Virus record (IMG/VR): IMGVR_UViG_3300048838_000291
Coordinates: 1 to 42,521 of that record
Strand: one strand, 5' to 3'
Source of the DNA: a virus
DNA length: 42,521 nucleotides
This document shows positions 1 to 42,521 of the stretch, in pieces (the first letter of the stretch is position 1; each line of letters opens with the position of its first letter). Both the position numbers and the translations under genes were made by a program. The notes below the pieces were generated by a model, which had not been told where the DNA came from, made no database searches, and worked only from the letters and a program-made list of their open reading frames with translations.

Positions 1-127
1 GGAAGTCGTCGACGTCGTTCATGCGCGCGGGTCGGCGACCGGTGCTCGGCGTGCGGACCTCGGCGGCCGGTTCGCCGCCGGCGTCACCCGGCATTCCAGG
101 AGCTCGTCGAGCTCGGGGATCTCGCGC
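1..127. repeat. Terminal direct repeat, left copy (circular assembly overlap)
   Basis: Bases 1-127 are identical to 42395-42521. 127 is a usual largest k-mer of short-read assemblers, so the repeat most likely marks a circular contig whose ends overlap by one k-mer, not a biological terminal repeat. After removing one copy the circle is about 42,394 bp. The repeat lies inside coding sequence: it covers the end of the gene at 19-378 and the first codons of the gene that continues from 42416 leftward. Confidence 0.93.
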
Positions 128-5091: not shown

Positions 5092-5330
5092 ACGTCGGCC
5101 TCCAGTTTCAGGTGCTCGACGACCAGTCGCCGAGTCTTGCCGAACGCCTCCGGCCGCCACCACAGGCGGCCCTCGGCGTCCAAATCGGTGATCAGTTGGG
5201 ACCGCCACCGTTCGGCCGGCGGTTGTTCGGGTTCGTGCCAGACGGCGCCGAACGAGCTCCCGACGCGAACGAGTGTCGCGCCAGGCCGCGCGGCGGCGAC
5301 GGCTTTCTTCAGTCGTTGGGTGAGCCGCAT
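5088..5330 (-). CDS. Hypothetical protein (80 aa)
   Basis: The 80-residue product begins MRLTQRLKKAVAAARPGATL and contains FGAVWHEPEQPP and GRLWWRPEAF. Its aromatic content argues for a folded domain, but I know no family for it. It shares the junction base with the MazG-like gene upstream and overlaps the zinc-ribbon gene downstream by four bases. Confidence 0.6.
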   Translation of the reverse strand: MRLTQRLKKAVAAARPGATLVRVGSSFGAVWHEPEQPPAERWRSQLITDLDAEGRLWWRPEAFGKTRRLVVEHLKLEADV

Positions 5331-5728
5331 CAGGAGCCCTCGACCGGGTACAGGTGCCAGTCGGAACCATCGTCGGCGATGCGCACCTGGCTCTGCACGC
5401 GCCGCGAAACGGCGTTGAACTTCGCGATCGTCGCGCGCCCTAGGTTGACGTGCAGGGACGCCGCCAGGATGTCCAGGTACGTTTGCACGTCGGCGAGCTC
5501 GTTCGCTACGTCGTCGCGCACGTCCTCGAGCGTGAAGTCGCCGCGGCGGATCTTTTTCAACAGGTTTGCCAGTTCGCCGAGCTCGCCGGCAACGGCCGTG
5601 AGCCAGTCGTTCGCCGTCCAGGTCGTGTGATCGGTCGTCTCGCCGCGAGCGTTCTTGAACCCAGGAAGGCGCCGCTGGTTCGCGGCGCGAAGAACGTTGA
5701 ACGTCAGTCCGTCGGTCATGTATCCCAT
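5330..5728 (-). CDS. MazG-like nucleotide pyrophosphohydrolase
   Basis: The 132-residue product carries the two half-motifs of MazG-type enzymes: ELGELANLLKK (ExxE, Glu49 and Glu52) and ANELADVQTYLDILA (ExxD), which bind magnesium in the family. The N-terminal RLPGFKN and W...TAVAGELGEL are also typical. Such enzymes hydrolyse nucleoside triphosphates to monophosphates; phage versions are thought to adjust dNTP pools or the (p)ppGpp response. The start at 5728 overlaps the upstream TGA (TGATG); a second ATG nine bases downstream is also possible. Confidence 0.8.
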   Translation of the reverse strand: MGYMTDGLTFNVLRAANQRRLPGFKNARGETTDHTTWTANDWLTAVAGELGELANLLKKIRRGDFTLEDVRDDVANELADVQTYLDILAASLHVNLGRATIAKFNAVSRRVQSQVRIADDGSDWHLYPVEGS

Positions 5729-6907: not shown

Positions 6908-7705
6908 CTATTCTGTTGCGTTCCCCTTCGACGGGGGTTCCGGCTCGTCGGCCGACGGCGGAAGCGGCACGCCGAACCGACGCGCCAGGGCCTCAGCCGC
7001 GCCCGGCGCCGTCGCCGCCAGCGCCCGCATCGCGTGCCCCATCACGATCTCCGCGACGTCGGCACGCTCGGCCAGGTCGAGCAGCGCCAGGAGCTCGTGC
7101 CGGTCGATGTTGTAGCGCCACAGGTCGCCGTCGAGCCGCTGGCGAAGGTTCTTGCCCGTCGGCGAGCCGATCCCCTGAGCTTCCAGTCGCGCCGGCAGAC
7201 CGACGCGCAGCAGCTGCAGCTGCTCGACCGGCCACTCGAGCCGGATCGACAGGCCGCACAGGTAGTACACCAGCAGCCCGCGGTTGCGACTGAGCCACAT
7301 CACGCGCCGAACGACAAGCCGCGCCGTCAACTGCACGACGAACCGCTCCATCGAACCGCGCTCGGGGCGGTAGAAGTGCTTCGCAGCGAGGCACAGCAGC
7401 GCCAGGATCTGTCGGTCGCTCATTGGCCCGCCCACGTGTGGCGCTAGCAGTTTCGCCCGCTCGACCGTCTGCCGGATCCGCGCCTCGTCGAGCGGAATCG
7501 GCGCGGCCGCGGCGGCGAGCACCAGGCGCCAGGCCAGGCTCTTCGGGTACGGCGCGCTGCGCACGACCGCCGGCCGCCCTTCCCACGTCCGCCCGGCCGC
7601 GGCGCGCTCGCAGTCCTCGCGGCTCAGGAACCGGTGCACCGTGCCGAACGGCTCGCCGTCGGCCAGGAAGTAGAACACGCGCACGAACTCGGTTCGCTGG
7701 CTCAT
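6908..7705 (-). CDS. Hypothetical protein (265 aa), first gene of the early operon
   Basis: The ATG at 7705-7703 opens a 265-residue product beginning MSQRTEFVRVFYFLADGEPF. It has an N-terminal beta-rich section, then a long helical region with LALLCLAAKHFYRPERG and WLSRNRGLLVYYLCGL, and an acidic Pro-rich tail. It is the first gene after the tRNA and so probably the first made from an early promoter, which I could not identify. Its composition fits a soluble helical protein. No family was recognised. Confidence 0.62.
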   Translation of the reverse strand: MSQRTEFVRVFYFLADGEPFGTVHRFLSREDCERAAAGRTWEGRPAVVRSAPYPKSLAWRLVLAAAAAPIPLDEARIRQTVERAKLLAPHVGGPMSDRQILALLCLAAKHFYRPERGSMERFVVQLTARLVVRRVMWLSRNRGLLVYYLCGLSIRLEWPVEQLQLLRVGLPARLEAQGIGSPTGKNLRQRLDGDLWRYNIDRHELLALLDLAERADVAEIVMGHAMRALAATAPGAAEALARRFGVPLPPSADEPEPPSKGNATE

Positions 7706-7821
7706 GTCGCCCCCATCGGCACACGGCCGCCCGGCCTGAAGGGAAGGAACGCGACGGCCTGCAGCCCCCTCGTCGTCGCGCAGATCCGCATCGCTGCGCG
7801 CAAGCTGCAGACCGTCACGAA
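7706..7821. other. 116-bp non-coding gap between tRNA and early operon
   Basis: This gap separates the tRNA gene from the first early gene on the minus strand. An early promoter or a tRNA 3' processing site is expected here, but I could not find a convincing -10/-35 pair. The last bases before the ATG contain GGGGGCGAC, a weak ribosome-binding site. Confidence 0.4.
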
Positions 7822-7897
7822 TGGAAGCGGGGGCGGGATTCGAACCCGCGACCTCCGGGGTATGAACCCGGCGATCTGCCAACTGATCTACCCCGCA
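7822..7897 (-). tRNA. tRNA-Met (CAU) with initiator (fMet) hallmarks
   Basis: A full 76-nt cloverleaf, including an encoded CCA, can be drawn on the minus strand. The acceptor stem pairs positions 2-7 (GCGGGG with CCCCGC), while position 1 (T) cannot pair with position 72 (T). The D stem is GATC/GATC with A11-T24. The anticodon stem is CCGGG/CCCGG around loop TTCATAC (anticodon CAT at 7864-7862). The variable loop is AGGTC and the T arm GCGGG-TTCGAAT-CCCGC. An open 1-72 pair, A11-T24 and three G-C pairs at 29-31/39-41 are the recognised determinants of bacterial initiator tRNA. It lies just after a terminator and before the early operon. An elongator Met or Ile2 tRNA is much less likely. Confidence 0.93.
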
Positions 7898-7940
7898 CCG
7901 AACGCCCGCGACGGTACCGCCCGGCCCGTCCGCTGCAGCG

Positions 7941-7979
7941 AAGAAAGATCCCCCGGCCCGCATGCTGGCAGGCCGGGGG
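7941..7979 (-). terminator. Rho-independent terminator ending the late operon
   Basis: On the minus strand a 9-bp perfect stem (CCCCCGGCC / GGCCGGGGG, plus-strand 7950-7958 and 7971-7979) with a 12-nt loop is followed by ATCTTTCTT. This is a good intrinsic terminator. It separates the structural genes from the tRNA and the early genes, the only such signal I found, so the genome may have two main transcription units. Confidence 0.7.
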
Positions 7980-8028
7980 CAAGTCCCACCGGGGAGAAGG
8001 GGGCGGCGGAACTCTCGACCCGTGCCGG

Positions 8029-8313
8029 TCACCAGGCACCGCCGATGAGCCATGCGACCAGGGCCTGCGGCCACTCGGTCACGGCGGCCAGGAGGAACAG
8101 GCCGATCGTGAAACACGCGCCGGCGGCCTCGATCGCAGGTGATGGAACTGCCGCGGCATCAGGCGGGGCAGTTCCGGGGTTTCTCGCGCCCGGCGCTATG
8201 CCTTGGGTGTGTTCACCAGGGCGGGCCCGCTGCACCTGGCTTGCAGCAGTCCGAACATCGGGCAGAGAGAACGCGTCGAGCCGCTGGCGCGGCTGGTGAT
8301 CGTGGTACGGCAT
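8029..8313 (-). CDS. Possible small membrane protein (94 aa)
   Basis: The frame opens with an ATG at 8313 preceded by AAGG at suitable spacing. The first 55 residues are Arg/Pro/Ala-rich and of low credibility, but the last 35 (ACFTIGLFLLAAVTEWPQAL, then VAWLIGGAW) form one or two hydrophobic helices. A shorter product from a later start is possible. Its position after the tail fibre gene is where a holin could lie, but nothing shows this directly. Confidence 0.38.
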   Translation of the reverse strand: MPYHDHQPRQRLDAFSLPDVRTAASQVQRARPGEHTQGIAPGARNPGTAPPDAAAVPSPAIEAAGACFTIGLFLLAAVTEWPQALVAWLIGGAW

Positions 8314-8335
8314 GCGGAACCCTTGGTGAACACAC
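8207..8335. repeat. Separated 12-bp inverted repeat
   Basis: GTGTGTTCACCA at 8207-8218 recurs as its exact reverse complement at 8324-8335, 105 bp away. On the inner side both arms continue with GGG-type sequence. The pair brackets the start of the small membrane reading frame and lies just beyond the tail fibre gene. It could be a pair of operator sites or part of a lost mobile element; I see no transposase. Confidence 0.6.
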
Positions 8336-8379
8336 GCGCCTGCTTACAGGCACGCGGCACCGGGTGCAAGCGTGCGGTT

Positions 8380-10911
8380 CTACTTCCAGAACGGCAGGCG
8401 CGACCACCTGGCGCGCTGCTCGCCGGGGAACGTGCGCGCCGGGAAGTAGCCATCGACGCTCGGGACCTCGGGCGGATCGGTCACCACGCCGTTCGGGTCC
8501 GACACGGCGAAGACGATCCAGGCCGCCGGCGGCGTGAACGCCACGGAGCCCAGGACGGTGCCAGGCGGCCCGGTCGTCAGCTGCAGCGCCACGGCGGCCG
8601 GCGTCGACGCGATCGAGCCCAGGACGCCCGCGGGGGCCGTGTCGGCGAACTCGAGCACGGCGGCCGCCGGCGTGCCGACCACCGCCTCGAGCAGCACGAC
8701 GGGACCCGTCGCGCCGAGCGTGACGCCGCACGCCGCCGGCGACGACGCGATCGAGCCGACGCGCACGCCAGGCGGCCCGGCCTCGACCTCGAGCGTGACT
8801 GTCTCGGCCTGAGCCGTGATGTTGCCGACGGTCGTTCCGTCGGCGCCCCAATCGAGCAGCGCGACGTTCTTCAGCACGCCCGGCGTCGTCGCCGACGGCG
8901 ACCACGACCAGGCCTCGGGGTCCGTCAGCGACGGGTTGCCGGTGCCGATGCGCGGCGCGGCCGGCTCCGCCGACCACGGCGACGCCAGCGGGTTGCCGGC
9001 AAACCACGGCGCGCCGCCGGTCGCGTTCGTGCCGATCGTCGGGCCGCTGATCGTGTGGCAGCTGTCGATCGTCGCCCCTTGCGCTAGCGCCTCGAACGCG
9101 GTCGGCGTGATCGAGCCGAAGACACAGTTGACGATCTCAAGCCCCGTGAAGTCACGAACCGGCAGGCCGCCGGCAATGAAGTTGGACAGGAACAGGGGGC
9201 CCGTGAACGTGCACCGCCGAATCAGCGAGTGCGTCAGGTCGCCCTCGGCCATCATGATCTGTTTGCCGTCGGCGCTGCCGCGCAGGTTGTCGAGAAGCAG
9301 CCTCGTGTGTGGCTCGCCGTTCGTAAACACCGACGACGCCGAGCCGGTGCAGTTCGTGACCGCGATGTCGCACAGGATGTCATCGCCGGTGCGTTCGGGG
9401 CCGATGCTGTAGTTGTTGCCGTGCACCGCGACGTTGTAGGGACTGCTGCCGAACTCGCCGCGCTGCCACGTCTCGATGTTGCTCGACGGCGTTCCGTTCT
9501 CGGCGACGGCAGACGGGTTCAGGTAGTCAATGAAGCTGCGGCCGCCCGTGACGCCGGTTCCGGTGATCTCGAACGCGCCGTTGTTCGCTGCCGTCGGGAA
9601 CGCGACCAGGCCGACGCCCCACTGCGGCGAGCCGAGCATGCCGGCAGCGTCTCGGCCGAAGTCGTATCCGCCGGGCGGGCCGAGCAGCCGCGCCGCGCCG
9701 CCGCCGAGCACCTGGATCTCAAACCCGGTCCCGCCGGCGTGCCGCACCCACCCTTCCACCTGGCCGGGACCTTGCGAGTAGCGGTTCAGGGCGGCGACGC
9801 ACGCGAGAACGCATGTGCTCTTGCGCGGGCCGACGACGAAGAACGCGTTGCCCAGCCAGCCCACGGCCTCGCAGTCGTAGACGAACGTCGAATCGGTGTA
9901 GCTCCACAGCGTCCCGCGTCGCAGTTCGCCGGTGACGATCGTCTTGCACGCGTCCGCGTCGGCCTGGTTCTGCGCGTACCACCCCCACGCGTTGTTGTTG
10001 CGCAGGTCGTCGGCCCAGCGAACCGACACTGTTCCGTCGTCGACGAAGTAGGCCGACCCGGTCGTGCAGCCCTCGCGCCAGACCGTTCCCTCGACACCTT
10101 CGCCGACGTAGCCATCGGGACCACCGCCCAGGATCGTGCAGCCGCGCAGTCGAATGCGCGTCTTCGTGCCGGGGCCGTTCCCCTGCATGCACACGGTGTC
10201 GACGCCCGGCGTGAACCACGGCTGGTTGAAGCGGCCCCACTGCATGCCGGCCGCGTCGGCCTCGATCTCGAGCCAATGGTCGCCGGTGCAGTGCCACGGG
10301 AACTGCGTCCCGGTCGCGCCGTTGGCGCCGCCGTAGAACACGCCGCGCGCCCGGATGAGTGCGCCGCCGCAATCGCGGTCGGCCGAGCTCGTGCCGCCGG
10401 GGTTCGCTTGCGCGAGGTAGATCGCGCGGTTCATCGTGCGCACCGCCAGGAGCCAGGTCGATCCGTCGTTGGCGTCGTCGCCAGTGTCCGCGTCGGCGTG
10501 AATCACCTTCGACGACGGCCGCCGGTCGACGCCGTCGCTGTCGTTGTGGATCGTCACAGACTCCATGACGCGGATCGACCCGTCGCTTCCGCTCGCGACG
10601 GCATCGACGACGATCGTTCCGCCTGGCAGTCGGCGATGGTCGATCAGCGCGCGGTAGCCACGGAACGGCGCCTGGCCACTGGTCACGCCAGGCATTCGCG
10701 ACGGCACGTCGGAGAAATCGGGACGCACTATCTGCCGCATCAGTGCCGAGGTGGCTCTCTGCGGCACGCCGTTGATCGTGACCTGGTAGTCGACGCGTTC
10801 GCCGGCGCCGCCGAGCGTCGATCCGACCAGCCAGGTGATCGTCGTCGTGCGATGCGACGACGGCGTTCGCCGAATGCCGCTGATCCCGATTGTGCGGCCG
10901 AGCGTGACCAC
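8380..10911 (-). CDS. Tail fibre / tailspike protein with beta-helix and C-terminal repeats
   Basis: The 843-residue product starts with GTG, three bases after the upstream stop. After an N-terminal adaptor region (about 1-130) comes a long stretch with the short turns and repeated polar strands of a right-handed beta-helix (for example HADADTGDDANDGSTW near residue 140, then IRLRGCTILGGG and GLEIVNCVFGS). Residues 695-809 are five head-to-tail 23-residue repeats of the type LGSIASTPAAVALQLTTGPP. The family is expected to bind or cut host surface polysaccharide. No catalytic residues were identified. It ends in an aromatic-basic tail RARWSRLPFWK. Confidence 0.8.
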   Translation of the reverse strand: MVTLGRTIGISGIRRTPSSHRTTTITWLVGSTLGGAGERVDYQVTINGVPQRATSALMRQIVRPDFSDVPSRMPGVTSGQAPFRGYRALIDHRRLPGGTIVVDAVASGSDGSIRVMESVTIHNDSDGVDRRPSSKVIHADADTGDDANDGSTWLLAVRTMNRAIYLAQANPGGTSSADRDCGGALIRARGVFYGGANGATGTQFPWHCTGDHWLEIEADAAGMQWGRFNQPWFTPGVDTVCMQGNGPGTKTRIRLRGCTILGGGPDGYVGEGVEGTVWREGCTTGSAYFVDDGTVSVRWADDLRNNNAWGWYAQNQADADACKTIVTGELRRGTLWSYTDSTFVYDCEAVGWLGNAFFVVGPRKSTCVLACVAALNRYSQGPGQVEGWVRHAGGTGFEIQVLGGGAARLLGPPGGYDFGRDAAGMLGSPQWGVGLVAFPTAANNGAFEITGTGVTGGRSFIDYLNPSAVAENGTPSSNIETWQRGEFGSSPYNVAVHGNNYSIGPERTGDDILCDIAVTNCTGSASSVFTNGEPHTRLLLDNLRGSADGKQIMMAEGDLTHSLIRRCTFTGPLFLSNFIAGGLPVRDFTGLEIVNCVFGSITPTAFEALAQGATIDSCHTISGPTIGTNATGGAPWFAGNPLASPWSAEPAAPRIGTGNPSLTDPEAWSWSPSATTPGVLKNVALLDWGADGTTVGNITAQAETVTLEVEAGPPGVRVGSIASSPAACGVTLGATGPVVLLEAVVGTPAAAVLEFADTAPAGVLGSIASTPAAVALQLTTGPPGTVLGSVAFTPPAAWIVFAVSDPNGVVTDPPEVPSVDGYFPARTFPGEQRARWSRLPFWK
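8485..8829 (-). repeat. Five 69-bp coding repeats (23 residues each) in the tail fibre gene
   Basis: Residues 695-717, 718-740, 741-763, 764-786 and 787-809 align without gaps. Each begins with a V/L-G-x-I-like strand, then a TPAA-like turn, a hydrophobic strand and a GPPG-like turn. The DNA copies are diverged, so the repeats are old or kept by protein-level selection. They probably form stacked beta units in a trimeric stalk or a glycan-binding module. Confidence 0.75.
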
Positions 10912-13626: not shown

Positions 13627-16600
13627 CTACAGGTGCGCAGAGTACCGGAGCTCGGACACCTGCACGCCCCAGGAAACCGCCTCGCGGTTCAGCGTCACCC
13701 GCGCCTGCATCTTCTGCGCGACGACGACGCGGTCCTCGTGCGGCTTCCAGTCCGACCACACGGAATCGACCTCGAACCTGGACTCGACAAGCGCGCGCGT
13801 GTGCGTGCCAGGTTCGCCGATGTGACCGCCGACGAGCAGCGTCGCCGGCGAGTCCTCGACGGTCCAAATCGCCTCGTCGACCAGCAGCTGCCAATCGTGG
13901 CCAGGTGCGTATGGCGACGCCGGCCGCGTGTCGACGGTGCGCCAGGTCGCTTCGCCGCTGCCAACCTCGAACACGGCCTCGTCGACGGTCAGCGCGTCGG
14001 CCTCGAGCGCATCGCAGACGACGCGCCAGAACGCCGGCGCCTGGTAGCCCAGGTCCAGGGCCTCGGCGGTGTAGGTGCCGGCGACCTCGTCGGCCTCGAG
14101 CTCGAGCACGCCCTCGCCGGCGTTCCACTCGGTCCCGTCGTGCGTCCCGCTCGGCGTCGTTGCCGTGTCGTCGTGGCTCTCGACCTCGATCGTGCCAGGC
14201 GGCGACCAGGCCGGCGCCGGCAGAGTCACGCGCGGGCCGTACAGCCCCGATCGACTGCGCGGCGCCACCTGCAGCGGCAGGTCGGGCGGCGCCGTCAGGC
14301 GCACGCGCGGCGCGCGGCCGCGGTAGAGCGTCCGGGCCGCCGGCCAGTGCGAGCCCGCCCGCAGTTCGTAGTACTCGAGGTCCCGCTGCTCGATGTCGTC
14401 CCACGCGATCAGCAGATCGCCGCCCAGGTTCACCGCGCGCGCGCCGGTGACCTCCGGGAGCGCGATCCGGGAGAACTCTTCGGCGAAGATGGTTGCGGCC
14501 GTTCCGTCCGACACGGCGCCCCACTGGCCATCGATGCCGCGCTGCACGATCGCGACCTCGTACGGCCGGCCTGGCCGAACGGCGTCCGTGTCGATCCTGG
14601 TGTCGTCGGTCTGGCCGAGCAGTTCGAACTCGCCGGCGTCGCTGCGTGCGTAGACGCGCACCGGTTGCGTTGCGATCGAAGAGTCGGGCGACTCCCAGCC
14701 GATCGTCGTCGTGCCGGCGGGTCCGCTGATCGTCTTCACGTTGCGCACCGGATCGGGGATCAGGGAGCGCAGCGCCACCGCCGGAGTGCTCTGCAGGCCC
14801 TCCCACTCCGATTGCGTCAGCACGTCGTGCACTTCCGGCACCCACTGCACCGCGCGAACCTGGCGCCGCATGTCGCGCTGCAGGGTCAGCGAGACGATCT
14901 GATAGTGCTCGGTGAGCTTGTCGACCAGGCCGACGACGCACTCGGTGCCGGCGACCAGGTCGACGGGGTCGCCGTCGACGGTGACCAGGCAGCCGGGCCG
15001 GCCTCCGACCTCGACGTTCAGGAACGACGCCACGCCGCGCGTCATCGGCTCGCCGTCGGGAAGTCGGAACACGATCTGCAGGCCCGTTCCGGCGAGTGCG
15101 TGATCGATCGCGACGACGTTCGTCGCCTCAGAGTCGAGCAGCATCACGCCGGCCATCGGCACGTCGTCAGCGAACGGCCGCAACAGGTCGTGCTGGAACG
15201 CGAACACGTCGCCGACCTCGGCCGCGAGCGCCCACGGGCCGGTCGTGAACGCGATCTCGCGGCGAATCTTCGACTGCACGCGGTGCCGGAACTTGCCCTC
15301 GCGCCACAGCTGCGCGGGCCGCGTGACGCCGAACGCCTGGATCGCGTCGACAATCCATGCGTCCTTGTGCAGCGTCGCCGGGTTGTTGAGCGTGCTCTCG
15401 TCGTCCTCGACCGGAAGCACGTCGTTGGCGTAGTCGCGGTCTTCGTTGAGGAACTGGAAATGGAACACCGTCGCGCGCGCGTGCTTCGGCAGCCAGTTGA
15501 CTTGCACGTCCTCGACGTTTGCCGACGTGAACAGTTGCGAAACGGCCTTGGCCGGAACCGTGATCCCGGCGTCGCCGTGCGCGTCGCGGTACTGGTAGGC
15601 CACGGACAGCTTGCCGTTGCGCCAGATCGGGGTCGCCCGGCCGGCCGCGCAGATCGCCAGGACCCACTCCCAGGCAGGTTTCGCGACGTCGCCGACCAGG
15701 TCGACACAGAACGACGGCTCGCCCCACGGGTCCGCCGGGTTCGGGTCAGAGTCGCAGAACGCCGCCCATCGACGGAACGCCGGCCAGTCGATGCGTTCGT
15801 CCGTTATGAAGCTGCCGAGCCCCCACCGCTGCGTCAGGAAGTCGGCCAGGCACCATGCCGGGTTGCGGCCCGGCGGGTGCTGCATGAAGTCAAACGGCGC
15901 GGCCGGAACGTCCCAGCACGGTTCAGAGAACCCGTGAGTCGCGTCCCACACGCGAACGCGGCTCCCCTTGCAAACGACCACGATGTTCGGGAAGCCACCC
16001 GACGCGATCGACGTCGCCTCGAGCGACAGGCCGAACAGGGCCAGGCCGGAGTAGGCGAACTGGTGCCGCCCCTGCACGACGATGCTATGAACGACCGTCG
16101 TGTCGACCGTGCCGACGGACGCGACGAAGGTATTGCGCACCACCCGCACGTCGATTGGCCCGCTGGTGCCAGCCGGCAGCGCGTAGGACTGCGTGACGCC
16201 GACCGGCAGCTGCGTTGCGCCGTTCTGCGTGAACGTGCCGAGACTCGACCAGGCCTGGCCGGCGACCGAACTCGGCCGCCAGCTGATGTCGAACGCCACC
16301 GTGGTCTGCTGCAGGTTGCCGGTCGGGTCGAGCATGTACAGCCCGCCAGGCCATGACAGCGTGACCTGCACCTGCGCGATTCCTTCCGTGGTTCCGAACG
16401 TCGTTACCGACGTGTCCCCCTGCACCGTCAGCTGATCGTTGGGCGCGGCCGTGATCGAAGCACCGACGAACGGCGCCGGCAGTTCTTGCTGGTCGAGCGT
16501 GCCCGGCCGGATGTAGGCACGGGTCGAATCGTTGAACGGGCCGGCGAACGGCAGCCGAACGCCGTTGACGAACACGCCGGTCGGCAGGGGCGACACGAAG

Positions 16601-17175
16601 GCGGAGTTCAGGTTGTCGTAGCTGCCGAACGGCATCCCGGCGACCGAATGAAACGGTCCTTCGCCGAGCGCCAGCAGCACGTGCAGCTGCTGCGTCGTCA
16701 CGCTCAAACTGATAGACTGCCCTCCAAGTCCGTGCCGCCCGTACACCCACGGGATCGGCAGACCTGGCCCGTAGCTCGTGCGGATTCCGTCCCACGTGTA
16801 CGTCGGGGAGTTTGCTTCGCCTCGTTCCTGCGGTTGCCCCGGTGGCTTCGGTCGCGGGATCAGAAGCGACACGATGTAGTTCACCGCGAACGACACCACC
16901 GCCGACACGACTGCGTAGATCAGCAGCGCCAGAAGGTCGATACCGGCCGTGGTCGCCGGCGCCAGGATCAGCGTCTGGCCGTCCTGCAGCGCATCGTCGA
17001 GCCGTTCGTCGGGCAGCTGCTCGCCGTCGACGCCGACGTGAATCGGGACACCCTTCGGCAAGTGCCGTTCGAGCTCGAGCGCGATCGCGCGCGGCGAGAC
17101 GCCGGCGCGCGGGTCGATCTGAAACCGCTCGAGGTTCTCGCCGAGCATGCCGGCACGGATCACGACTTCAATCAT
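13627..17175 (-). CDS. Host specificity / central tail tip protein (lambda J-like)
   Basis: The 1182-residue product begins with a small domain (about 1-75) like the lambda I / J N-terminus and a hydrophobic stretch near residues 77-107 (LLALLIYAVVSAVVSFAVNY). It continues with the J-type core (TYTWDGIRTSYGPGLPIPWVYG, near 125-150; PAWCLADFLTQRWGLG, near 460). Fibronectin-III-like units follow near residue 800-880, then a C-terminal beta-rich part. A ribosome-binding site (AAGAGG) precedes the ATG. In lambda-like phages this protein closes the tail tube, contacts the receptor and starts DNA ejection. Order with the K- and L-like genes supports the call. Confidence 0.87.
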   Translation of the reverse strand: MIEVVIRAGMLGENLERFQIDPRAGVSPRAIALELERHLPKGVPIHVGVDGEQLPDERLDDALQDGQTLILAPATTAGIDLLALLIYAVVSAVVSFAVNYIVSLLIPRPKPPGQPQERGEANSPTYTWDGIRTSYGPGLPIPWVYGRHGLGGQSISLSVTTQQLHVLLALGEGPFHSVAGMPFGSYDNLNSAFVSPLPTGVFVNGVRLPFAGPFNDSTRAYIRPGTLDQQELPAPFVGASITAAPNDQLTVQGDTSVTTFGTTEGIAQVQVTLSWPGGLYMLDPTGNLQQTTVAFDISWRPSSVAGQAWSSLGTFTQNGATQLPVGVTQSYALPAGTSGPIDVRVVRNTFVASVGTVDTTVVHSIVVQGRHQFAYSGLALFGLSLEATSIASGGFPNIVVVCKGSRVRVWDATHGFSEPCWDVPAAPFDFMQHPPGRNPAWCLADFLTQRWGLGSFITDERIDWPAFRRWAAFCDSDPNPADPWGEPSFCVDLVGDVAKPAWEWVLAICAAGRATPIWRNGKLSVAYQYRDAHGDAGITVPAKAVSQLFTSANVEDVQVNWLPKHARATVFHFQFLNEDRDYANDVLPVEDDESTLNNPATLHKDAWIVDAIQAFGVTRPAQLWREGKFRHRVQSKIRREIAFTTGPWALAAEVGDVFAFQHDLLRPFADDVPMAGVMLLDSEATNVVAIDHALAGTGLQIVFRLPDGEPMTRGVASFLNVEVGGRPGCLVTVDGDPVDLVAGTECVVGLVDKLTEHYQIVSLTLQRDMRRQVRAVQWVPEVHDVLTQSEWEGLQSTPAVALRSLIPDPVRNVKTISGPAGTTTIGWESPDSSIATQPVRVYARSDAGEFELLGQTDDTRIDTDAVRPGRPYEVAIVQRGIDGQWGAVSDGTAATIFAEEFSRIALPEVTGARAVNLGGDLLIAWDDIEQRDLEYYELRAGSHWPAARTLYRGRAPRVRLTAPPDLPLQVAPRSRSGLYGPRVTLPAPAWSPPGTIEVESHDDTATTPSGTHDGTEWNAGEGVLELEADEVAGTYTAEALDLGYQAPAFWRVVCDALEADALTVDEAVFEVGSGEATWRTVDTRPASPYAPGHDWQLLVDEAIWTVEDSPATLLVGGHIGEPGTHTRALVESRFEVDSVWSDWKPHEDRVVVAQKMQARVTLNREAVSWGVQVSELRYSAHL

Positions 17176-20034: not shown

Positions 20035-22215
20035 CTACCCGGTCGCCCGCTGCAGGACCTGGCGCATGCCGTGGCGTGTCTCGACCTGGTTCGTCCAGAT
20101 CGTTCGCAGCGTCGCCTGCTCTTCGATCAGGACTCGCTTCACGTCGCGGCCGTTCATCGCGTTGATGTTGAACGTGAGGTTGGTCCCGCTGGTGCCGTTG
20201 AGCGTGACCGGAATCGAGCGGTTGTCGGGCAGCGGCACGAACGCCTCGCGCTGCCGGCCCTCGCCGAACACGGCCATCGTCGGCCGGTCGGCGATGCCGC
20301 CGCGCGCGAACGCGCGAACCGGGTACGTGTTCTCGATCGGGCCTGGCGAGATACCACCGGTGGCGTAGCCGAGCACCGCCTGCACGGCCTGCAGGGCGAT
20401 CAGCCGCGCGATGATTCTCGCGATGTCGCCCAGGATCGAGCGCGCCAGGTCCTTGAACGCGTCCTTCCAGGACTTCGTGCCTTCGATCGCGGAGCCGATC
20501 GCCTCGACCGTGCCGTCGAGTGCGTTCGTGACCAGGCTCCGGCCAGCCTCGAGCCCGGCCTGTTCGAAGTCGGTCCACTCCTGGACGCCGCGCCGGATGC
20601 CGGCCGAGAACCCGCCGAAGAAATCGCCGCCGCCGACCAGCCGCTGCTGCTTCTCGAGCGCACGCGTCACGGCCTCGGTGCCGGCGCGAAACTCTTCTTG
20701 CGAGATCGTGCCCTTCTCGTATGCGTCCTTGAGCTCGAGCTTCTGCGATTCGGCGTCGAGCTCGGCGACGGCCAGGCGCAGCGACTCGACGCCTGGTGAC
20801 AGCTGCGCCAGCCGCTGGTAGACGCCCAGCTTCTCGCGCGCGCGAGCCAACGACAGTTCTTCCGTCGTGCCGGCGTCGGCCGTCGGCGCCGACGTCGGCG
20901 GCCGGAACACCGACGACGGCGCCGCGGCGTTCGCCCGCTCCTGGATTCCCTTCAGCAGCTGGCCGAGAACGGCGTCGCTGTAGTCCGCGGCGTCCTGCGG
21001 CGTCGGCAGGCCGAACGCGGCCGCGGTCTGCTCCGGCGAGCTCGGGCCGGCCACCGATCGGCGAATGTCGGCGATCGACTGCTCGAGCTCGCGGCTCAGA
21101 GTCTCGCGCGTGCGCTGCATGGCTCCGGCCAGGCCGCGGTCCACGTCCTCGGTCAGCTGCTCGAGCTCGCGCTGCAGGGCGGCCTTCCTGGCCCGCTGCG
21201 CCTCGGGCTTCTCGCCGCCGAGAACGATCTGCTGCAGGCCGAAGTCCTCGATCTGCTTCAGTTCGCGACGGATCTCGCGGAGCCGGTTCGTTTGCTCGTC
21301 GCCGACCAGGTTCACGCCGGGGATCGACTCGATGAGACGCACCAGGCCGATGATCGCGTCGATGGCCAGGTTGACGGCCTGCACGATGCCGTAGCCGATC
21401 GCACGAACCACGTCGGCGATGCCCGCCCGGTTGCTGGCGATCGCCTTCGCCAGCTTCTCGAGAACGGCGATCACCTGCGGTCCGCCTTGCTCGAGGATGG
21501 CGCGCGCCACGCTCTCGGCGGCGAACTGCACCTTCGAAAACGCGTCGTTGAGCCGTTCGGCGATGCCGGCCTGCGCACCGGTGACCGTCGCGCCGGCGTC
21601 GCGCGCGGCGAGCACCGTCTCGCGGAAGGCCTCGCCGCCGCGGCCGACCAGCGGAAGCATCTGCAGGAACTCGCCGGTCGCCAGCCTGGCCAGCGCGAAC
21701 TGGCGTCCGTTGGCGTCTTCGATCTTGCCCAGGCCGTCGGCGATCTTCTCGAACAGTTGCGACGGGCCCAGCGTGCGCAGGTCCTGGATCGTGACGCCCA
21801 GCTGGCCGAACGACCGGACCACCTGCAGGTTTCCGGCGAGTGCCTTCGACTGTTCCTGCGCCATCACGCGCACCAGCTGCGTGAAGTCCTGGATGCCCGA
21901 CAGCGTCGCGGCCGCCTGTAGCTCACTCAGGTTCTCGACGGCGTCGCCCGTCGACGTCGCGAGCTTCGTCAGCGCGTCGGCCTGCGCGCCGACGTCGCGC
22001 AGGAACGTCAGCCCGCGGAACCCGGCATAGGCCGTGACCAGGCCGAGCACCTGGCCGCGGATCGACGTCAGCAGCCGCCCCAGGCCGCGGAGCCCGGCGG
22101 CCGGCAGCTTGCCCAGCTGCAGCAGACCACGCGAAAGCGTCGTGAGCGGCTTCGTCGCGAGGTCCTGCAGGATGATCCGCAGACTCAGCGTACGCTTCGT
22201 GTTCGGGCTAGCCAT
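20035..22215 (-). CDS. Tape measure protein
   Basis: The 726-residue product is long and mostly helical, with hydrophobic patches (LTSIRGQVLGLVTAYAGFRG near residue 50; VNLAIDAIIGLVRLIESIPG near 275), Gln- and Arg-rich helices, and a C-terminal Gly-rich part (ARGGIADRPTMAVFGEG) common to tape measure proteins. Length predicts a tail near 110 nm by the usual 0.15 nm per residue. It follows the G/GT chaperone genes and precedes the tail tip genes, as in lambda. Part of the sequence is likely cut or ejected during infection. Confidence 0.9.
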   Translation of the reverse strand: MASPNTKRTLSLRIILQDLATKPLTTLSRGLLQLGKLPAAGLRGLGRLLTSIRGQVLGLVTAYAGFRGLTFLRDVGAQADALTKLATSTGDAVENLSELQAAATLSGIQDFTQLVRVMAQEQSKALAGNLQVVRSFGQLGVTIQDLRTLGPSQLFEKIADGLGKIEDANGRQFALARLATGEFLQMLPLVGRGGEAFRETVLAARDAGATVTGAQAGIAERLNDAFSKVQFAAESVARAILEQGGPQVIAVLEKLAKAIASNRAGIADVVRAIGYGIVQAVNLAIDAIIGLVRLIESIPGVNLVGDEQTNRLREIRRELKQIEDFGLQQIVLGGEKPEAQRARKAALQRELEQLTEDVDRGLAGAMQRTRETLSRELEQSIADIRRSVAGPSSPEQTAAAFGLPTPQDAADYSDAVLGQLLKGIQERANAAAPSSVFRPPTSAPTADAGTTEELSLARAREKLGVYQRLAQLSPGVESLRLAVAELDAESQKLELKDAYEKGTISQEEFRAGTEAVTRALEKQQRLVGGGDFFGGFSAGIRRGVQEWTDFEQAGLEAGRSLVTNALDGTVEAIGSAIEGTKSWKDAFKDLARSILGDIARIIARLIALQAVQAVLGYATGGISPGPIENTYPVRAFARGGIADRPTMAVFGEGRQREAFVPLPDNRSIPVTLNGTSGTNLTFNINAMNGRDVKRVLIEEQATLRTIWTNQVETRHGMRQVLQRATG

Positions 22216-27314: not shown

Positions 27315-28241
27315 CTACGTGAGCTCGGTCCGCGTCGCCAGTTCGAAGCGGCCCAAGGCCGCCTGGCCGACACGCTTCGCGCCGAACGCGACGGAGTCCT
27401 TCCAGAACCCGTTGTCGCTCTCGGCGCCCAGCGTCTTGAACGCGTCCGACAGTTCGCGTTCCTGCCACAGCAGCGCGCGCACGTTCGCATCGGTGCGGAA
27501 CGTGTGGATGCGGCGACCGGCGGCCGCGGCCGTGCCGGTGAGCCTGGCGTTCGCCGCGATCTGGATGTCGACGCCGGCGTTGATCAGCGTGTTGGACACG
27601 CCGGCCGACGTGAACTGGTTCTGCTTCGCCGCGACGGCAGCCGACCAGAACTTCGGCGGGACCATGACCAGGAACGACATCGCGTCTTCGTTGACGGGGT
27701 CGCCGTTCTCGTCCTTGAACCCCATCTGCGCCTGGATCGCGAGGAGGATCGCCTTCGCCATCTCGGCCGACGTCGGGTCGTCGGGATCGGCGACGTCGAG
27801 CGTCAGGAGGTTCTGCGCGGTGCCGTACTTGACGTGCGTCCCGTAGAACGCGACGCCGTCGTAGGCCGTGCCGTTCGCCTCGAGCAGTTCGGAGATGATC
27901 CGGTCGGGCAGGATCGCGGCCTTGCTGCCCAGGTCGCGCACGCGGCCCATCAGCTGGCCGGTCTTGTCCATCGTGACGTCGTCGACGTCGGCCTCGATCG
28001 TGGCCGTGAACTTGTCGTTGACGATCGTCAGCCCCGCGTCGCGCAGCTGCTGGCGTTCGCGCTCGCCGGCCCACTTCTTCATGCCGGGAGCCTGGCCCAG
28101 CCACTTGTAGACCTCGAGCGGTTGGTCGGTCGTGACCATGCTCGCGATCTGCGGCACCCACGAACGGGAAGCGCGCTGCTCGAGCGAAAGGAAGTAGTTA
28201 CCGCGGATGTTGCGGTAGCTCAGTGATTGCACCGTGCCCAT
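27315..28241 (-). CDS. Major capsid protein (Mu gpT-like)
   Basis: The 308-residue product fits the Mu-like major head subunit family: LEVYKWLGQAPGMKKWAGER near residue 42, then GLTIVNDKFTATIEADVDDV, FYGTHVKYGT, FLVMVPPKFWSA and a C-terminal LLWQERELSDAFK. The family has the HK97 capsid fold. It has its own leader with a ribosome-binding site (GAGGACCGAAG) and sits after the protease-scaffold gene. Combining a Mu-type capsid with a lambda-type portal and terminase shows module exchange. It is flanked on both sides by perfect GC hairpins. Confidence 0.88.
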   Translation of the reverse strand: MGTVQSLSYRNIRGNYFLSLEQRASRSWVPQIASMVTTDQPLEVYKWLGQAPGMKKWAGERERQQLRDAGLTIVNDKFTATIEADVDDVTMDKTGQLMGRVRDLGSKAAILPDRIISELLEANGTAYDGVAFYGTHVKYGTAQNLLTLDVADPDDPTSAEMAKAILLAIQAQMGFKDENGDPVNEDAMSFLVMVPPKFWSAAVAAKQNQFTSAGVSNTLINAGVDIQIAANARLTGTAAAAGRRIHTFRTDANVRALLWQERELSDAFKTLGAESDNGFWKDSVAFGAKRVGQAALGRFELATRTELT

Positions 28242-28335: not shown

Positions 28336-29466
28336 TCAATCGGTCTGCGCCGCGTCCAGCTGCGCGCGGGTGCCGTAGTCCTTGCAGCGGTGCTTGTTCC
28401 GGCAGTAGGCCAGCCAGACGTTCTTGTCGCCGCCGAACTCGGCCCGCAGCTTCGCGGACTCGGCCCACTGCACTTCGAGATCGTCCTCGGCGAGCTCGGC
28501 GGCATCGGTGGCCGGCGCCGGCTTCTTGCGCGGCAGGACCTCGGCGCTGTTGCCGGCGGCGAGCGGTTCGGCGGCGGCCGCGGCGGCCGTCGGCTTCTTC
28601 GCCGCCAGCCGGACCTTCAGGTCCTGGTTCAGCTGCAGCAGCGCATCGGACAGCGCGACGCCATCGGCGATCAGCTTCCGCGCGAGCTCGATCTGTGCGT
28701 CGGCGGCGGATTCGAGGATCACGTTCGCACGCTTGCGCTCGGCCTCCGCGGCGTCCTGCGTCAGCTTCGCCGAATCGACTTCGGGAACCGCCGGGGCGGG
28801 GGCCGCGGCGACGGGAGCGGCGTTCGCCGCGGGTTGCTTGGTCGTCATGTTCTCGTTCAGGGAAAGGACCGCGACCACTTCGCCGGCGTCGGCCGACAGC
28901 GAGGTAGCGGAAGTGTCGTCGTCGACACCCAGCGCCGTGAAAGTCACTTCGCGCAGGGTGCACTCTCGAAAGATCACGCCGGGGCCGACCATCGTTCCGC
29001 CGTTCAGTTCGGACTCTTCGCCTTCGGCCAGGCGGAGCACCTTGTGCGGCTCGAAGTAGGTCGACGCTTGCCAGGGGAACCCGGCATCGCTGTCGGCCAT
29101 CACTTCGGCGGCCGCTTCACTGTGCAGCATCAAGCTACCCTCGGCGATCAGACCGCGAGTCTTGTCGACGCGCAGTGCGGTCGTGAACCCGACGCGCAGG
29201 TCGGTTCGATGGTTCATCAGCACCGGCAGCTTCTGCTTCATGCGGATTCCGGCCAGGTCGATGCCAAGCTGCCCGTACCACCAGTGCGAAAGCGGCTTGC
29301 CCGACAGCGCGACCATCGAGAACGGGCGGGTCTTCGGTGCCCCTTCGTCGCCCTCGGCCGCCACGGCGGCCGCGAGCTCGATCGGCGTCAGCGCCTGCAG
29401 GTAGCACGCCTGCAGCGGGATTCGGACTTCCGCGCCTGGCGCGGCCTCGAGCATGGTCGGGTTCAT
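28336..29466 (-). CDS. Prohead protease with C-terminal scaffold domain
   Basis: The 376-residue product begins MNPTMLEAAPGAEVRIPLQA. The N-terminal 200 residues resemble prohead proteases: a likely catalytic His in LPVLMNHRTDLRVG, a Gly-rich turn, a likely Ser in FPWQASTYFEP and TLREVTFTALG. Residues about 205-320 are Ala/Pro-rich then helical (AERKRANVILESAADAQIEL), as in scaffold proteins. An internal ATG at 28848 could give the scaffold alone, as in lambda C/Nu3. The last 45 residues have WAESAKLRAEFGGDKNVWLAY. The ATG overlaps the portal stop. Confidence 0.78.
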   Translation of the reverse strand: MNPTMLEAAPGAEVRIPLQACYLQALTPIELAAAVAAEGDEGAPKTRPFSMVALSGKPLSHWWYGQLGIDLAGIRMKQKLPVLMNHRTDLRVGFTTALRVDKTRGLIAEGSLMLHSEAAAEVMADSDAGFPWQASTYFEPHKVLRLAEGEESELNGGTMVGPGVIFRECTLREVTFTALGVDDDTSATSLSADAGEVVAVLSLNENMTTKQPAANAAPVAAAPAPAVPEVDSAKLTQDAAEAERKRANVILESAADAQIELARKLIADGVALSDALLQLNQDLKVRLAAKKPTAAAAAAEPLAAGNSAEVLPRKKPAPATDAAELAEDDLEVQWAESAKLRAEFGGDKNVWLAYCRNKHRCKDYGTRAQLDAAQTD

Positions 29467-31160
29467 TCGTCTTCGGCTCCTGCAGCGGCCTTGTCGGCGT
29501 CGCTGTCGTCGGTGGCGTCGTCGTCGGTGGGTTCGTCCTTGGTGTCGGCGTCGTCGTCCGGCGGATCGTCGTCGTCGTCGGCGCCGCCGTCCGCCGGCGG
29601 CGATGGCTCGTTCGGCTTGCGCGTCAGCGCGCCACCCTTGAGCCCCATCTCCTGTTCGATCTTCGCTGCTTCGCGCAGGAACGCACCGCGCTCGCGCAGG
29701 ACCTCGAGCCAGTGCAGACCCTGGCGGCTCGCCTCGATCTGCGGCGTCGAAATGTTCGCGGCGATCGCGGCGTCGCTGCCGGCGGCGTCGGCGACCGGGT
29801 CGACGATTCCGTAGGCCGGCGCCACCCATCGGCACGCCAGGAACGGCCGGTCGTTGTCGACCCAGCGCGGCGACGGCGGCACCAACCGGCCACTGTTGAC
29901 CGCGGCACGGATGACGTTCCGGTACCATGGCCGGTTGAACTGGCGGTTCAGCTTCGAACGCGCCTGGTCGAACCCTCGGCGGACCTCGCGAAGCAGCGTG
30001 CGCGAGCTCGAAAGGTTCATGCGGCCGAAGTCCTTGGCGACCATCTCGTACGCCAGGCCCAGCGACGAGCAGAACGCACGAAGGACGCGCGTCACGAACG
30101 TATCGAACTGCGCGCCGGGCCGGTTCGGCGAGAACGCCACCGGCTCTTCGCCTTCGTTCAGGTACTCGATCGTGCCGGCGTTGAGCTCCTGGTAGTACGT
30201 CTGCCCGGTCGCCTGTTCGTTGTCCTGCACCGGAAACACGTCCTGGTCGGTTTCCGAAAGCGGCCGCCGAATGAACATCGCGTAGTTGCTCGCGGCGCGC
30301 GCGGCGATGAGCTCGGAATCGAGGTAGTGGTGCAGGTGACGCGCGTAGAGCAGCGACGCCGCGGTCCACGGCACGCCGCGCGTCTGCCCGGCGCGGCGCC
30401 GGCGGAACACGTGCTGCACCATGCTGTACTCGCCGGACTCCGCGGCGAGCCGCACCGTCTCGCGGGACGCGTTGTAGCCGAACAGGCTGTCGTCCGGGTG
30501 CCCTCGCATGACGTGGTAGGCGACCGCGCGGCCGTGCGCGTCGAGCTCAACGCCGCCGCGCATCGTGTCCGTGTCGACGTGGTTCGGCGACTCCAGCCGG
30601 TCGACGTCGATCAGTTCGCACGCCAGCATGCCGTCGCCGCCCATCACCGCGTGCGACAGCGTCTCGCCGTCCGACACCCAGCAGCGAACGACGAGCTCCT
30701 GCAGGTCGTAGAAGCTTCCGGTGCCGGTCGCGTCGGCCTCTTCGTCGGACCACCGTTCCCACTCGGCCAGGCAGGCCGCGTTCCACTCGTCACATTGCTT
30801 CTCGGTGAGCCCCGTCGACGCCGGCGTGCAGGCCGGTTGCGGCGTGATGCCGGTTCCGACGATGTTCTCGGCGTGAATGTCCGCGGCGCTGCTGGCGTGC
30901 GCGTCGTCGCGGATCAGCGCGCGCGACAGGTCGCGAAGCGTCTTCAGGTCCGGCAGGATGTCGCCGTCGGCCGAGACGCTGCGCTCGGGCCCGTTGACGC
31001 GCGACACCCGCGCCGCCTCGAACGCGAGCAGCGCGGCAGACTTCACGCGGGCCTTCTGCATCCGGTGCACCAGCTGCGGCGCCAGGATGGACACGGTGCG
31101 GTCGACGGCGCGCGCCAGCTTGCCGGCGATGCCGGCGTAGATCGGTTGTCGTTTCATCAC
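29463..31160 (-). CDS. Portal protein (lambda gpB family)
   Basis: The 565-residue product fits the lambda-type portal family: DLKTLRDLSRALIRDDAHAS near residue 70, WCVSDGETL-like core (CWVSDGETLSHAVMGG), QHVFRRRRAGQTRGVPWTAA near 245, and EQATGQTYYQELNAGTIEYL. It forms the twelve-subunit ring at the head vertex through which DNA is packaged. The last 50 residues are extremely acidic (Asp-rich) and probably disordered. The first codons are ATG ATG, and either may be used. It overlaps both neighbours by four bases. Confidence 0.88.
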   Translation of the reverse strand: MMKRQPIYAGIAGKLARAVDRTVSILAPQLVHRMQKARVKSAALLAFEAARVSRVNGPERSVSADGDILPDLKTLRDLSRALIRDDAHASSAADIHAENIVGTGITPQPACTPASTGLTEKQCDEWNAACLAEWERWSDEEADATGTGSFYDLQELVVRCWVSDGETLSHAVMGGDGMLACELIDVDRLESPNHVDTDTMRGGVELDAHGRAVAYHVMRGHPDDSLFGYNASRETVRLAAESGEYSMVQHVFRRRRAGQTRGVPWTAASLLYARHLHHYLDSELIAARAASNYAMFIRRPLSETDQDVFPVQDNEQATGQTYYQELNAGTIEYLNEGEEPVAFSPNRPGAQFDTFVTRVLRAFCSSLGLAYEMVAKDFGRMNLSSSRTLLREVRRGFDQARSKLNRQFNRPWYRNVIRAAVNSGRLVPPSPRWVDNDRPFLACRWVAPAYGIVDPVADAAGSDAAIAANISTPQIEASRQGLHWLEVLRERGAFLREAAKIEQEMGLKGGALTRKPNEPSPPADGGADDDDDPPDDDADTKDEPTDDDATDDSDADKAAAGAEDE

Positions 31161-34100: not shown

Positions 34101-34303
34101 ACCCAAACGCCGGTTCCAAGGATGCGGCGCACCATGCCGCGCGCACCGGACACGGTGCCGGTGAGAATCGTCCCGATCGGCGGTGGCGTCACCGGCGGGT
34201 TCAGCGTCGCGAAGTGCTGGCCCAGGATCGGGTCGACGTGCTGCAGCACGGTACCGCGCGCGTGTGTGTCGCCGACGATGCCGTAGTAGTGGGTGTCCGT
34301 CAC
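31157..34303 (-). CDS. Tandem SGNH (sialate esterase-like) protein fused to a gpW-like head-joining domain
   Basis: The 1048-residue product lies where lambda W lies, between terminase and portal. Residues about 985-1048 (DIVGMLDRAIQSGG, VNGRQVQMRSFDEMLRARKY) resemble gpW-type connectors. Upstream is an SGNH/SASA esterase-like domain: nucleophile Ser555 in VGHSQAVGN, GDND at 807-810, and DNGVH at 905-909. Residues 1-540 look like a second, degenerate copy: GDTHA at 11-15 (Thr for Ser), LFLWETELG near 412, DACRLPPDGYAELG at 511-524 (Arg for His), plus beta modules near 43-100 and 318-378. Activity (deacetylation of surface glycan) is inference. The start is GTG with no clear ribosome-binding site. 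Confidence 0.72.
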   Translation of the reverse strand: MTDTHYYGIVGDTHARGTVLQHVDPILGQHFATLNPPVTPPPIGTILTGTVSGARGMVRRILGTGVWVLKILDLTPWQWTPGELVNLDNGTTCNVAPFNFSATHAPGAAQYIPQHKDRRWNKAVPEDLTDTPYWDPYAKLAQTIVVPVASVSGVGAPWKLGDRFSTSGGGSFTLQFIDLDGANYVLGMLRQAGSIAASQTITNTSTAGTGTIATVNANPQVGAWVPYHAMPGLNGQATHYEIDPRGCSDAANQVHIGPENRLLHAAHDYHGAGLEVNDFGVRLFQHWNLDGTLADNFIAGVTVQAIPCSGTFPTSWVVGETVTAGTYSATVHAWNPTTKRLYVTAPNGQTLAAGSIVGSTSGATATATGPALGWQRGSRYFNDFAADLAKARATSGALYLGQPEKWEGLALFLWETELGTFAPGAATWPSLELMQREWLRVIEAFRDEIGDPDLRVGVWSFNMRSHLADIQIGGFPFSFVLLQLIDSLPTLDPNVVVIRSGDQELEDPTPDACRLPPDGYAELGDRVWRALAFKATTIASDTVELLHVGLIVGHSQAVGNIGTGAMIGLDRDPDLWPSGSFGIGVSTIDPNVIAFNCDTEEWEPWDCGQNSNTFHGSPKGTCGFEVPIVQRTKMRYSRTEGESAKVGLIKLALNGAATNATIPNATGVFDPDLSVRQSVIASLTATSLPADGMNPVQRIRLTGAAGTFSAPYWVVNLSTTISGSAGVQGVNGNNTPPHQVNRITAKAGDGSWIEVLGNGFAESATLTVEAGPPPLFPEAKRLIQTAFVKCAPLNLIPYPAWMVVDLGDNDFADVAGFQDALTRVVEAFEAVFGLRAKGVAALPKVICQTTSQTPFMPDDDTAVDSLRAAQAAVAAGLDNCTVADPSDLAMEIDSLGTWPRTHRRDNGVHRTARAHVQFGFRVDLKLEALTSIPSHPSGSANAESGTGVGADLRTAGTSVELRAAEIEGEDGDPEGSASAAAVGDPATVEDIVGMLDRAIQSGGDVSGYTVNGRQVQMRSFDEMLRARKYFAAEAQRNRGIRRTRVLFR

Positions 34304-36955: not shown

Positions 36956-36958
36956 CGT

Positions 36959-42416: not shown

Positions 42417-42521
42417 GCGCGCGGGTCGGCGACCGGTGCTCGGCGTGCGGACCTCGGCGGCCGGTTCGCCGCCGGCGTCACCCGGCATTCCAGGAGCTCG
42501 TCGAGCTCGGGGATCTCGCGC
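42395..42521. repeat. Terminal direct repeat, right copy (circular assembly overlap)
   Basis: This copy is identical to bases 1-127. It holds the start of the gene at 41949-42416 and, from 42413 on, a duplicate of the C-terminal end of the gene at 19-378, which should not be counted twice. Confidence 0.93.

What the first reader, a model, noticed from the sequence alone, without database searches (positions are those of the whole stretch)
7822..7897. Phage-encoded initiator-type tRNA (fMet)
The tRNA has anticodon CAU and three separate initiator determinants: an unpaired 1-72 position (T and T here, C and A in E. coli), A11-T24 in the D stem, and three consecutive G-C pairs at 29-31/39-41. 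It also matches E. coli initiator tRNA along much of its length and encodes its own CCA. Phage tRNAs are usually elongators that match codon usage; a lone initiator tRNA would instead act on translation initiation itself, for example to replace host initiator tRNA cut by a defence nuclease or to favour the many coupled and weak-leader starts seen here.
Basis: partly seen in the sequence, partly recalled or inferred. Interest (0 to 1): 0.85.

Follow-up and report, generated by a model that had tools for sequence, protein, structure and literature searches.

The report
Lone phage-encoded initiator tRNA
A complete but otherwise unfamiliar bacterial virus carries exactly one tRNA gene, and it is the special tRNA that starts protein synthesis; many unrelated phages turn out to do the same, often with a changed anticodon loop at the place where a known bacterial toxin cuts the host's copy.

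Summary
Window 7897..7822 (minus strand) encodes an intact 76-nt tRNA with anticodon CAU and its own CCA. It has the classical initiator features: unpaired 1-72 (U·U), A11:U24, three G:C pairs at 29-31/39-41, plus formylase pairs G2:C71, C3:G70, G4:C69; only A73 is replaced (U73). A bacterial-initiator model scores it 82.2 bits, an elongator-Met/Ile2 model 69.9. None of 528 non-CAU tRNAs shows all three determinants. The genome is complete (127-bp terminal repeat), with no other tRNA and no detected integrase. Phage initiator tRNAs are known; this survey suggests they recur: 42 of 55 selected virus records carry theirs as the only tRNA, including partly unannotated, syntenic cases in Bradleyvirinae. 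The host loop (CUCAUAA) was invariant in the one bacterial phylum checked. In a loop-neutral phage sample 25 of 73 clusters altered it, 19 at position 38, the 5' side of the bond cut by fMet-specific VapC. Here it is UUCAUAC. Best reading: a working initiator tRNA that replaces or supplements depleted host tRNA-fMet. Initiator identity is well supported by sequence; nuclease evasion is inferred, and 82 of 107 unique phage sequences keep the host loop. A new member of a known kind.

The parts
7822..7897 (-). tRNA-fMet-type gene (CAU), 76 nt with encoded CCA
7860..7866 (-). anticodon loop UUCAUAC (positions 32-38); bacterial initiators fetched here have CUCAUAA
7950..7979 (-). 12-bp G+C-rich hairpin with T-rich tail (CCCCCGGCCTGCCAGCATGCGGGCCGGGGG ATCTTTCTTC), terminator-like, upstream of the tRNA and downstream of the late genes
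   Evidence: one found, 0.6 expected in shuffles
7706..8379 (.). gap between predicted genes that holds the tRNA, between the late gene block and the next gene
6908..7705 (-). first predicted gene downstream of the tRNA (265 aa, no match in PHROGs, Pfam, NCBIfam or PADLOC)
8380..10911 (-). last predicted gene of the structural block upstream of the tRNA (843 aa, no family match)

Best explanation
The gene makes a working bacterial-type initiator tRNA. After RNase P processing it is charged by host MetRS (CAU anticodon), formylated by host methionyl-tRNA formyltransferase (unpaired 1-72, G2:C71, C3:G70, G4:C69, A11:U24), and selected in the P site through the three G:C pairs. During infection it replaces or supplements host tRNA-fMet, so phage proteins can still be started when host initiator is depleted. 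The altered loop (C32 to U, A38 to C) changes the 5' base of the A38-C39 bond cut by fMet-specific VapC toxins and may make this copy resistant. Shown here: the sequence determinants, conservation of the formylase pairs among phages, single-tRNA status, recurrence, and the loop changes. Inferred: charging, formylation, use in initiation, host depletion, nuclease resistance.
For: All three initiator determinants and three of the four minor formylase determinants are present (determinants in PMC9976931, and PMC2268962). Initiator model beats elongator model by 12.3 bits. In 107 unique loop-neutral phage initiators, pair entropy is lowest at the formylase pairs 2:71 (0.38 bits) and 3:70 (0.35) and rises to 1.46 at 6:67, as expected if formylation is selected. 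42 of 55 whole virus records with such a tRNA have exactly one tRNA match. In Bradleyvirinae phages of Pseudomonas, Stenotrophomonas, Xanthomonas and Janthinobacterium it lies between terL and the ribonucleotide reductase gene, which argues for retention. Loop altered in 25 of 73 clusters, 19 at position 38, against 0 of 108 bacterial genomes with a match (the list was cut, so this rests on its listed matches). VapC cuts between A38 and C39 of tRNA-fMet (PMC4105405) and extra tRNA-fMet genes partly rescue VapC growth arrest (PMC8522696).
Against: No expression, charging or initiation was tested; no promoter was recognised upstream. U73 replaces the A73 determinant. 82 of 107 unique phage initiators keep the host loop, so evasion cannot be the general reason for carrying one. 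The host, and whether it has an fMet-cutting nuclease, is unknown. The bacterial control covers one phylum only.
Confidence: 0.5

Rival explanations
1. Dosage: it is a working initiator tRNA that simply adds to the host pool to speed initiation on abundant phage mRNA, including coupled and weak-leader starts; no nuclease is involved and the loop changes are neutral drift within combinations that keep loop geometry.
For: Most phage initiators keep the host loop. Formylation and P-site binding are needed for re-initiation (PMC2268962) and 23 of 50 gene pairs here overlap by 4 or 1 nt. U32.C38 may be compatible with the normal loop shape (own knowledge).
Against: Coupled genes are usual in phages, most of which have no initiator tRNA (own knowledge). 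Drift does not explain why the listed bacterial initiators of a whole phylum keep the loop while phages change it.
Confidence: 0.3
2. Passenger: a host initiator gene picked up by recombination, with no selected function.
For: Host tRNA genes are mobile; S. meliloti prophages carry tRNA-fMet genes (PMC11476347).
Against: Best identity to a fetched bacterial initiator is 84%, yet every core determinant is intact; formylase pairs are the most conserved acceptor pairs among phages; syntenic retention in Bradleyvirinae.
Confidence: 0.1
3. tRNA-dependent lysogeny or att-site tRNA: the gene replaces a host initiator gene disrupted by integration.
For: The phenomenon is proven for other isotypes (PMC10865867); 20 of 56 records have a tyrosine integrase.
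Against: No tyrosine-integrase match in this complete genome and no integration or repressor gene among the proteins scanned; in the relatives the integrase is usually several kb away and in only one record (G192) under 1 kb (read).
Confidence: 0.03
4. Elongator Met or tRNA-Ile2 (CAU modified to lysidine).
For: CAU anticodon is shared; U73 is unusual for an initiator.
Against: 12.3 bits in favour of the initiator model; unpaired 1-72, A11:U24 and GGG/CCC, whereas all 12 unique bacterial non-initiator CAU tRNAs fetched have G1:C72 and C11:G24.
Confidence: 0.03
5. Decoy: the RNA soaks up fMet-directed toxins (VapC, AtaT) rather than serving translation.
For: Such toxins exist (PMC4105405, PMC7180214).
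Against: A decoy should keep the toxin's cut site; position 38 is changed here.
Confidence: 0.04

Closest known systems
Bacterial initiator tRNA-fMet
   Same: CAU, unpaired 1-72, A11:U24, three G:C pairs at 29-31/39-41, G2:C71, C3:G70, G4:C69, encoded CCA; U.U at 1-72 also occurs in bacteria
   Different: 84% at best to bacterial initiators fetched here; loop UUCAUAC instead of CUCAUAA; U73 instead of A73; D stem GAUC/GAUC
Phage-encoded tRNA-fMet (cyanophages, S. meliloti prophages, Stenotrophomonas QDWS359, Caulobacter CcrBL9, Erwinia SNUABM_47)
   Same: phage-borne initiator-type tRNA
   Different: several of these sit among other tRNAs; here it is the only tRNA of a complete 42.5-kb genome
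Initiator-type tRNA of Bradleyvirinae (PaMx74, DoCa5) and of Bordetella phage PHB09
   Same: PaMx74 and PHB09: the only tRNA in the record; all three: 1-72 mismatch, G2:C71, C3:G70; loops UUCAUAC or UUCAUAA
   Different: unrelated genome backbones; PaMx74 and DoCa5 have A73 and a changed anticodon stem; PHB09 has C11:G24
Phage tRNAs proposed to evade anticodon nucleases (van den Berg et al. 2023)
   Same: anticodon-loop change at a known cut site
   Different: that study says phages generally avoid tRNA-fMet in the VapC-LT2 case; here it is the sole tRNA and changed at position 38

Membership tests
Bacterial-type initiator tRNA (tRNA-fMet) | CAU anticodon | tested here: met
Bacterial-type initiator tRNA (tRNA-fMet) | Unpaired 1-72 | tested here: met
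   U1.U72
Bacterial-type initiator tRNA (tRNA-fMet) | R11:Y24 | tested here: met
   A11:U24
Bacterial-type initiator tRNA (tRNA-fMet) | Three consecutive G:C pairs 29-31/39-41 | tested here: met
Bacterial-type initiator tRNA (tRNA-fMet) | Minor formylase determinants G2:C71, C3:G70, G4:C69 | tested here: met
   list in PMC9976931
Bacterial-type initiator tRNA (tRNA-fMet) | A73 (minor formylase determinant, auxiliary rather than defining) | tested here: not met
   U73; also U in 6 of 107 phage initiators
Bacterial-type initiator tRNA (tRNA-fMet) | Scores better with an initiator than an elongator/Ile2 model | tested here: met
   82.2 vs 69.9 bits
Bacterial-type initiator tRNA (tRNA-fMet) | Charging, formylation, IF2 and P-site binding | not testable with these tools
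   needs biochemistry
tRNA-dependent lysogeny | Integrase with attP and a disrupted host tRNA of the same isotype | tested here: not met
   no PF00589 match in the window; serine recombinases not searched separately
Anticodon-nuclease-evading phage tRNA | Substitution at the nuclease cut site | tested here: met
   C38 instead of A38; VapC cuts A38/C39
Anticodon-nuclease-evading phage tRNA | Host encodes a nuclease that cuts its own tRNA-fMet but not this one | not tested
   host unknown

The most novel reading that the evidence does not exclude
Lone phage initiator tRNAs form a widespread, largely overlooked class selected to keep translation initiation running in infected cells. Repeated, independent changes at anticodon-loop position 38 mark an arms race with tRNA-fMet-specific nucleases such as VapC, against the published view that phages avoid tRNA-fMet.
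Probability: 0.3. Interest if true: 0.8.

Novelty: new member of a known kind. Interest (0 to 1): 0.5.

Why it matters
The purpose of phage tRNAs is a long-standing question. An initiator tRNA cannot be explained by codon matching, so a phage whose only tRNA is an initiator makes the question testable: delete one gene and measure infection with and without an fMet-cutting toxin. If loop changes at position 38 give resistance, this would be evidence that initiator depletion is a phage-defence route that phages have answered repeatedly. It also warns annotators: several isolated phages carry such genes unannotated or labelled simply tRNA-Met.

Tried and rejected
Relatives of the phage: TerL, the major capsid protein and an ORF overlapping the gene next to the tRNA gave no relatives in IMG/VR; best TerL match in phage records 35%, J protein 22%; host therefore not identified. 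A genome-wide scan for the tRNA variant found one Archangiaceae MAG contig with a Met-Pro-Asn tRNA array; the one match in that genome to the loop-neutral initiator pattern has the standard loop. The att-site and tRNA-dependent-lysogeny idea was tested with an integrase search and rejected for this phage. Elongator/Ile2 identity was tested with two covariance models and rejected. Minimum-free-energy folding of the bare sequence did not give the cloverleaf D arm, which is common for unmodified tRNA and was not used. My first table of 1-72 pairs was shifted by one base and was replaced. Winther and Gerdes 2011 was not held, so whether A38C blocks VapC could not be checked. A link between the tRNA and weak ribosome-binding sites could not be tested beyond counting.

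Full report
What is there. The window is an IMG/VR virus record of 42,521 bases. Its first and last 127 bases are identical, so it is a complete genome with terminal redundancy. A codon-usage gene call gives 51 genes, all on the minus strand. Recognised genes include TerL (34585-36477), portal (29463-31160), head protease region (28336-29466), major head protein (27315-28241), tape measure (20035-22215) and a J-like central tail fibre (13627-17175), plus a replication initiation protein (375-1325), a DNA methyltransferase (1877-2464) and a MazG-like protein (5330-5728). It is a siphovirus-like phage without close relatives. No tyrosine integrase was found.

The tRNA. ARAGORN finds a single tRNA, 7897..7822 on the minus strand, CAT anticodon; Rfam agrees with 65.2 bits. 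The RNA is UGCGGGG UA GAUC AGUUGGCA GAUC G CCGGG UUCAUAC CCCGG AGGUC GCGGG UUCGAAU CCCGC CCCCGCU U CCA. Position by position: U1.U72 unpaired, G2:C71, C3:G70, G4:C69, A11:U24, G29G30G31/C39C40C41, U73, CCA encoded. The literature gives the 1-72 mismatch and the three G:C pairs as the key initiator elements (PMC2268962), and the mismatch, A73, G2:C71, C3:G70, G4:C69 and R11:Y24 as formylase elements (PMC9976931). The window meets all of these except A73.

Is it more than chance? Among 528 unique non-CAU tRNAs on the fetched loci, none has all three classical determinants. All 12 unique bacterial non-initiator CAU tRNAs fetched have G1:C72 and C11:G24; all 20 unique bacterial initiators have A11:U24 and GGG/CCC, which is partly how they were sorted. 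A covariance model of 15 initiators scores the window 82.2 bits, and a model of 13 elongator-Met/Ile2 tRNAs scores it 69.9. The E. coli reference sequences in these sets and were typed from my own knowledge. The U.U mismatch is normal: 11 of those 20 bacterial initiators have it.

Context. The tRNA lies in a 674-bp gap (7706-8379) between the end of the structural block and the next gene. A 12-bp G+C-rich hairpin with a T-rich tail (7979-7950) sits just upstream. The arrangement suggests that the tRNA heads the next transcription unit, but no sigma-70-like promoter was found, so expression is an inference.

How common is this? An exact scan for the anticodon arm CCGGGTTCATACCCCGG finds 69 stretches in IMG/VR, and most are CAT tRNAs with initiator features and no second tRNA in the locus. 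In 55 records chosen because they carry such a tRNA, 42 contain exactly one tRNA match. Isolated phages have it too. In Bradleyvirinae it lies between terL and ribonucleotide reductase in PaMx74, DoCa5 and Elanor (unannotated), Donnerlittchen (tRNA-Met) and QDWS359 (tRNA-fMet with tRNA-Ile). It is unannotated in Bordetella phage PHB09, and D3 has one with three other tRNAs. Published precedents are cyanophages (PMC4810235), S. meliloti prophages (PMC11476347) and an Erwinia jumbo phage (PMC7760394). One study states that phages generally avoid tRNA-fMet in the VapC-LT2 case (PMC10264068).

Selection. In 107 unique loop-neutral phage initiators the pair entropy is 0.38 bits at 2:71 and 0.35 at 3:70, then 0.75, 1.07, 1.46 and 1.28 at 4:69 to 7:66. 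The pairs that formylase reads are the ones kept. This is sequence evidence that these tRNAs work as initiators, although shared ancestry was only handled by using unique sequences.

Anticodon loop. The window loop is UUCAUAC. In 146 bacterial genomes of one phylum, 108 have a match to the loop-neutral pattern, and every match listed reads CUCAUAA (the list was cut short). In the phage sample, grouped at 90% identity, 25 of 73 clusters have an altered loop and 19 are altered at position 38; among clusters found only as lone tRNAs it is 20 of 43. Fisher's test gives 0.001 against the 20 unique bacterial sequences and 7e-12 against 108 genomes; neither corrects for phylogeny, the bacterial side is one phylum, and the phage side spans many hosts. 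Enteric VapC cuts tRNA-fMet between A38 and C39 (PMC4105405), Bosea VapC1 lowers tRNA-fMet and extra metZWV copies partly rescue growth (PMC8522696), and AtaT acetylates initiator Met-tRNA (PMC7180214). Hence the proposal that the phage copy replaces a depleted host tRNA and that C38 may spare it from cutting. Whether C38 does so was not testable. 82 of 107 unique phage initiators keep the host loop, so plain supplementation remains a serious rival.

Other explanations. An att-site or tRNA-dependent-lysogeny role (PMC10865867) is rejected here because no integrase was found; among relatives with one, the distance to the tRNA is usually several kb. An elongator or Ile2 role is rejected by the models. 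A passenger gene is unlikely given kept determinants at 84% best identity to fetched bacterial initiators. Coupled starts are frequent (23 of 50 pairs), and re-initiation does need formylation and P-site binding (PMC2268962), but that does not single out this phage.

Verdict. The thing is a new member of a known kind, phage tRNA-fMet, in an uncommonly clean setting: one tRNA in a complete genome. The recurrence of lone phage initiators and the changes at position 38 are the more interesting result and need a phylogeny-aware survey and a cleavage assay.

Noticed in passing
window 1-127 and 42395-42521: Exact direct terminal repeat of 127 bp: the record is a complete, terminally redundant or circular genome.
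   Followed up: partly
window 31157-34303 (-): 1048-aa predicted gene between TerL and portal with no family match except a weak C-terminal hit to a head-tail adaptor profile.
   Followed up: no
window 36478-37415: 938-bp stretch without a confident gene just upstream of TerL, the largest such gap in the genome.
   Followed up: no
L194 (phage D3) 3000-3075 and L195: D3-type initiator tRNA has anticodon loop CCCAUAA, i.e. C33 in place of the near-universal U33.
   Followed up: no
L189 (Bordetella phage PHB09) 5001-5075: Unannotated lone CAU tRNA with U.U 1-72, GGG/CCC and U73 but C11:G24, next to a BrnT toxin gene; the two models barely separate it (72.8 vs 69.4 bits).
   Followed up: partly
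L197 5931-6168: Archangiaceae MAG contig with a Met(initiator-like, UUCAUAC)-Pro-Asn tRNA array, while the only match in that genome to the loop-neutral pattern has the standard loop.
   Followed up: partly
L012, L014, L020, L034, L036, L048, L067: A second phage group keeps GGG/CCC and mostly an unpaired 1-72 but has D stem GCGC/GCGC, so 11:24 is C:G.
   Followed up: no
L041 2482-2557 and L069 4274-4349: Two other phages carry a tRNA 93% identical to the window's, including U.U and U73, with no detectable protein similarity to the window in the DNA held: the tRNA may move between phages.
   Followed up: partly
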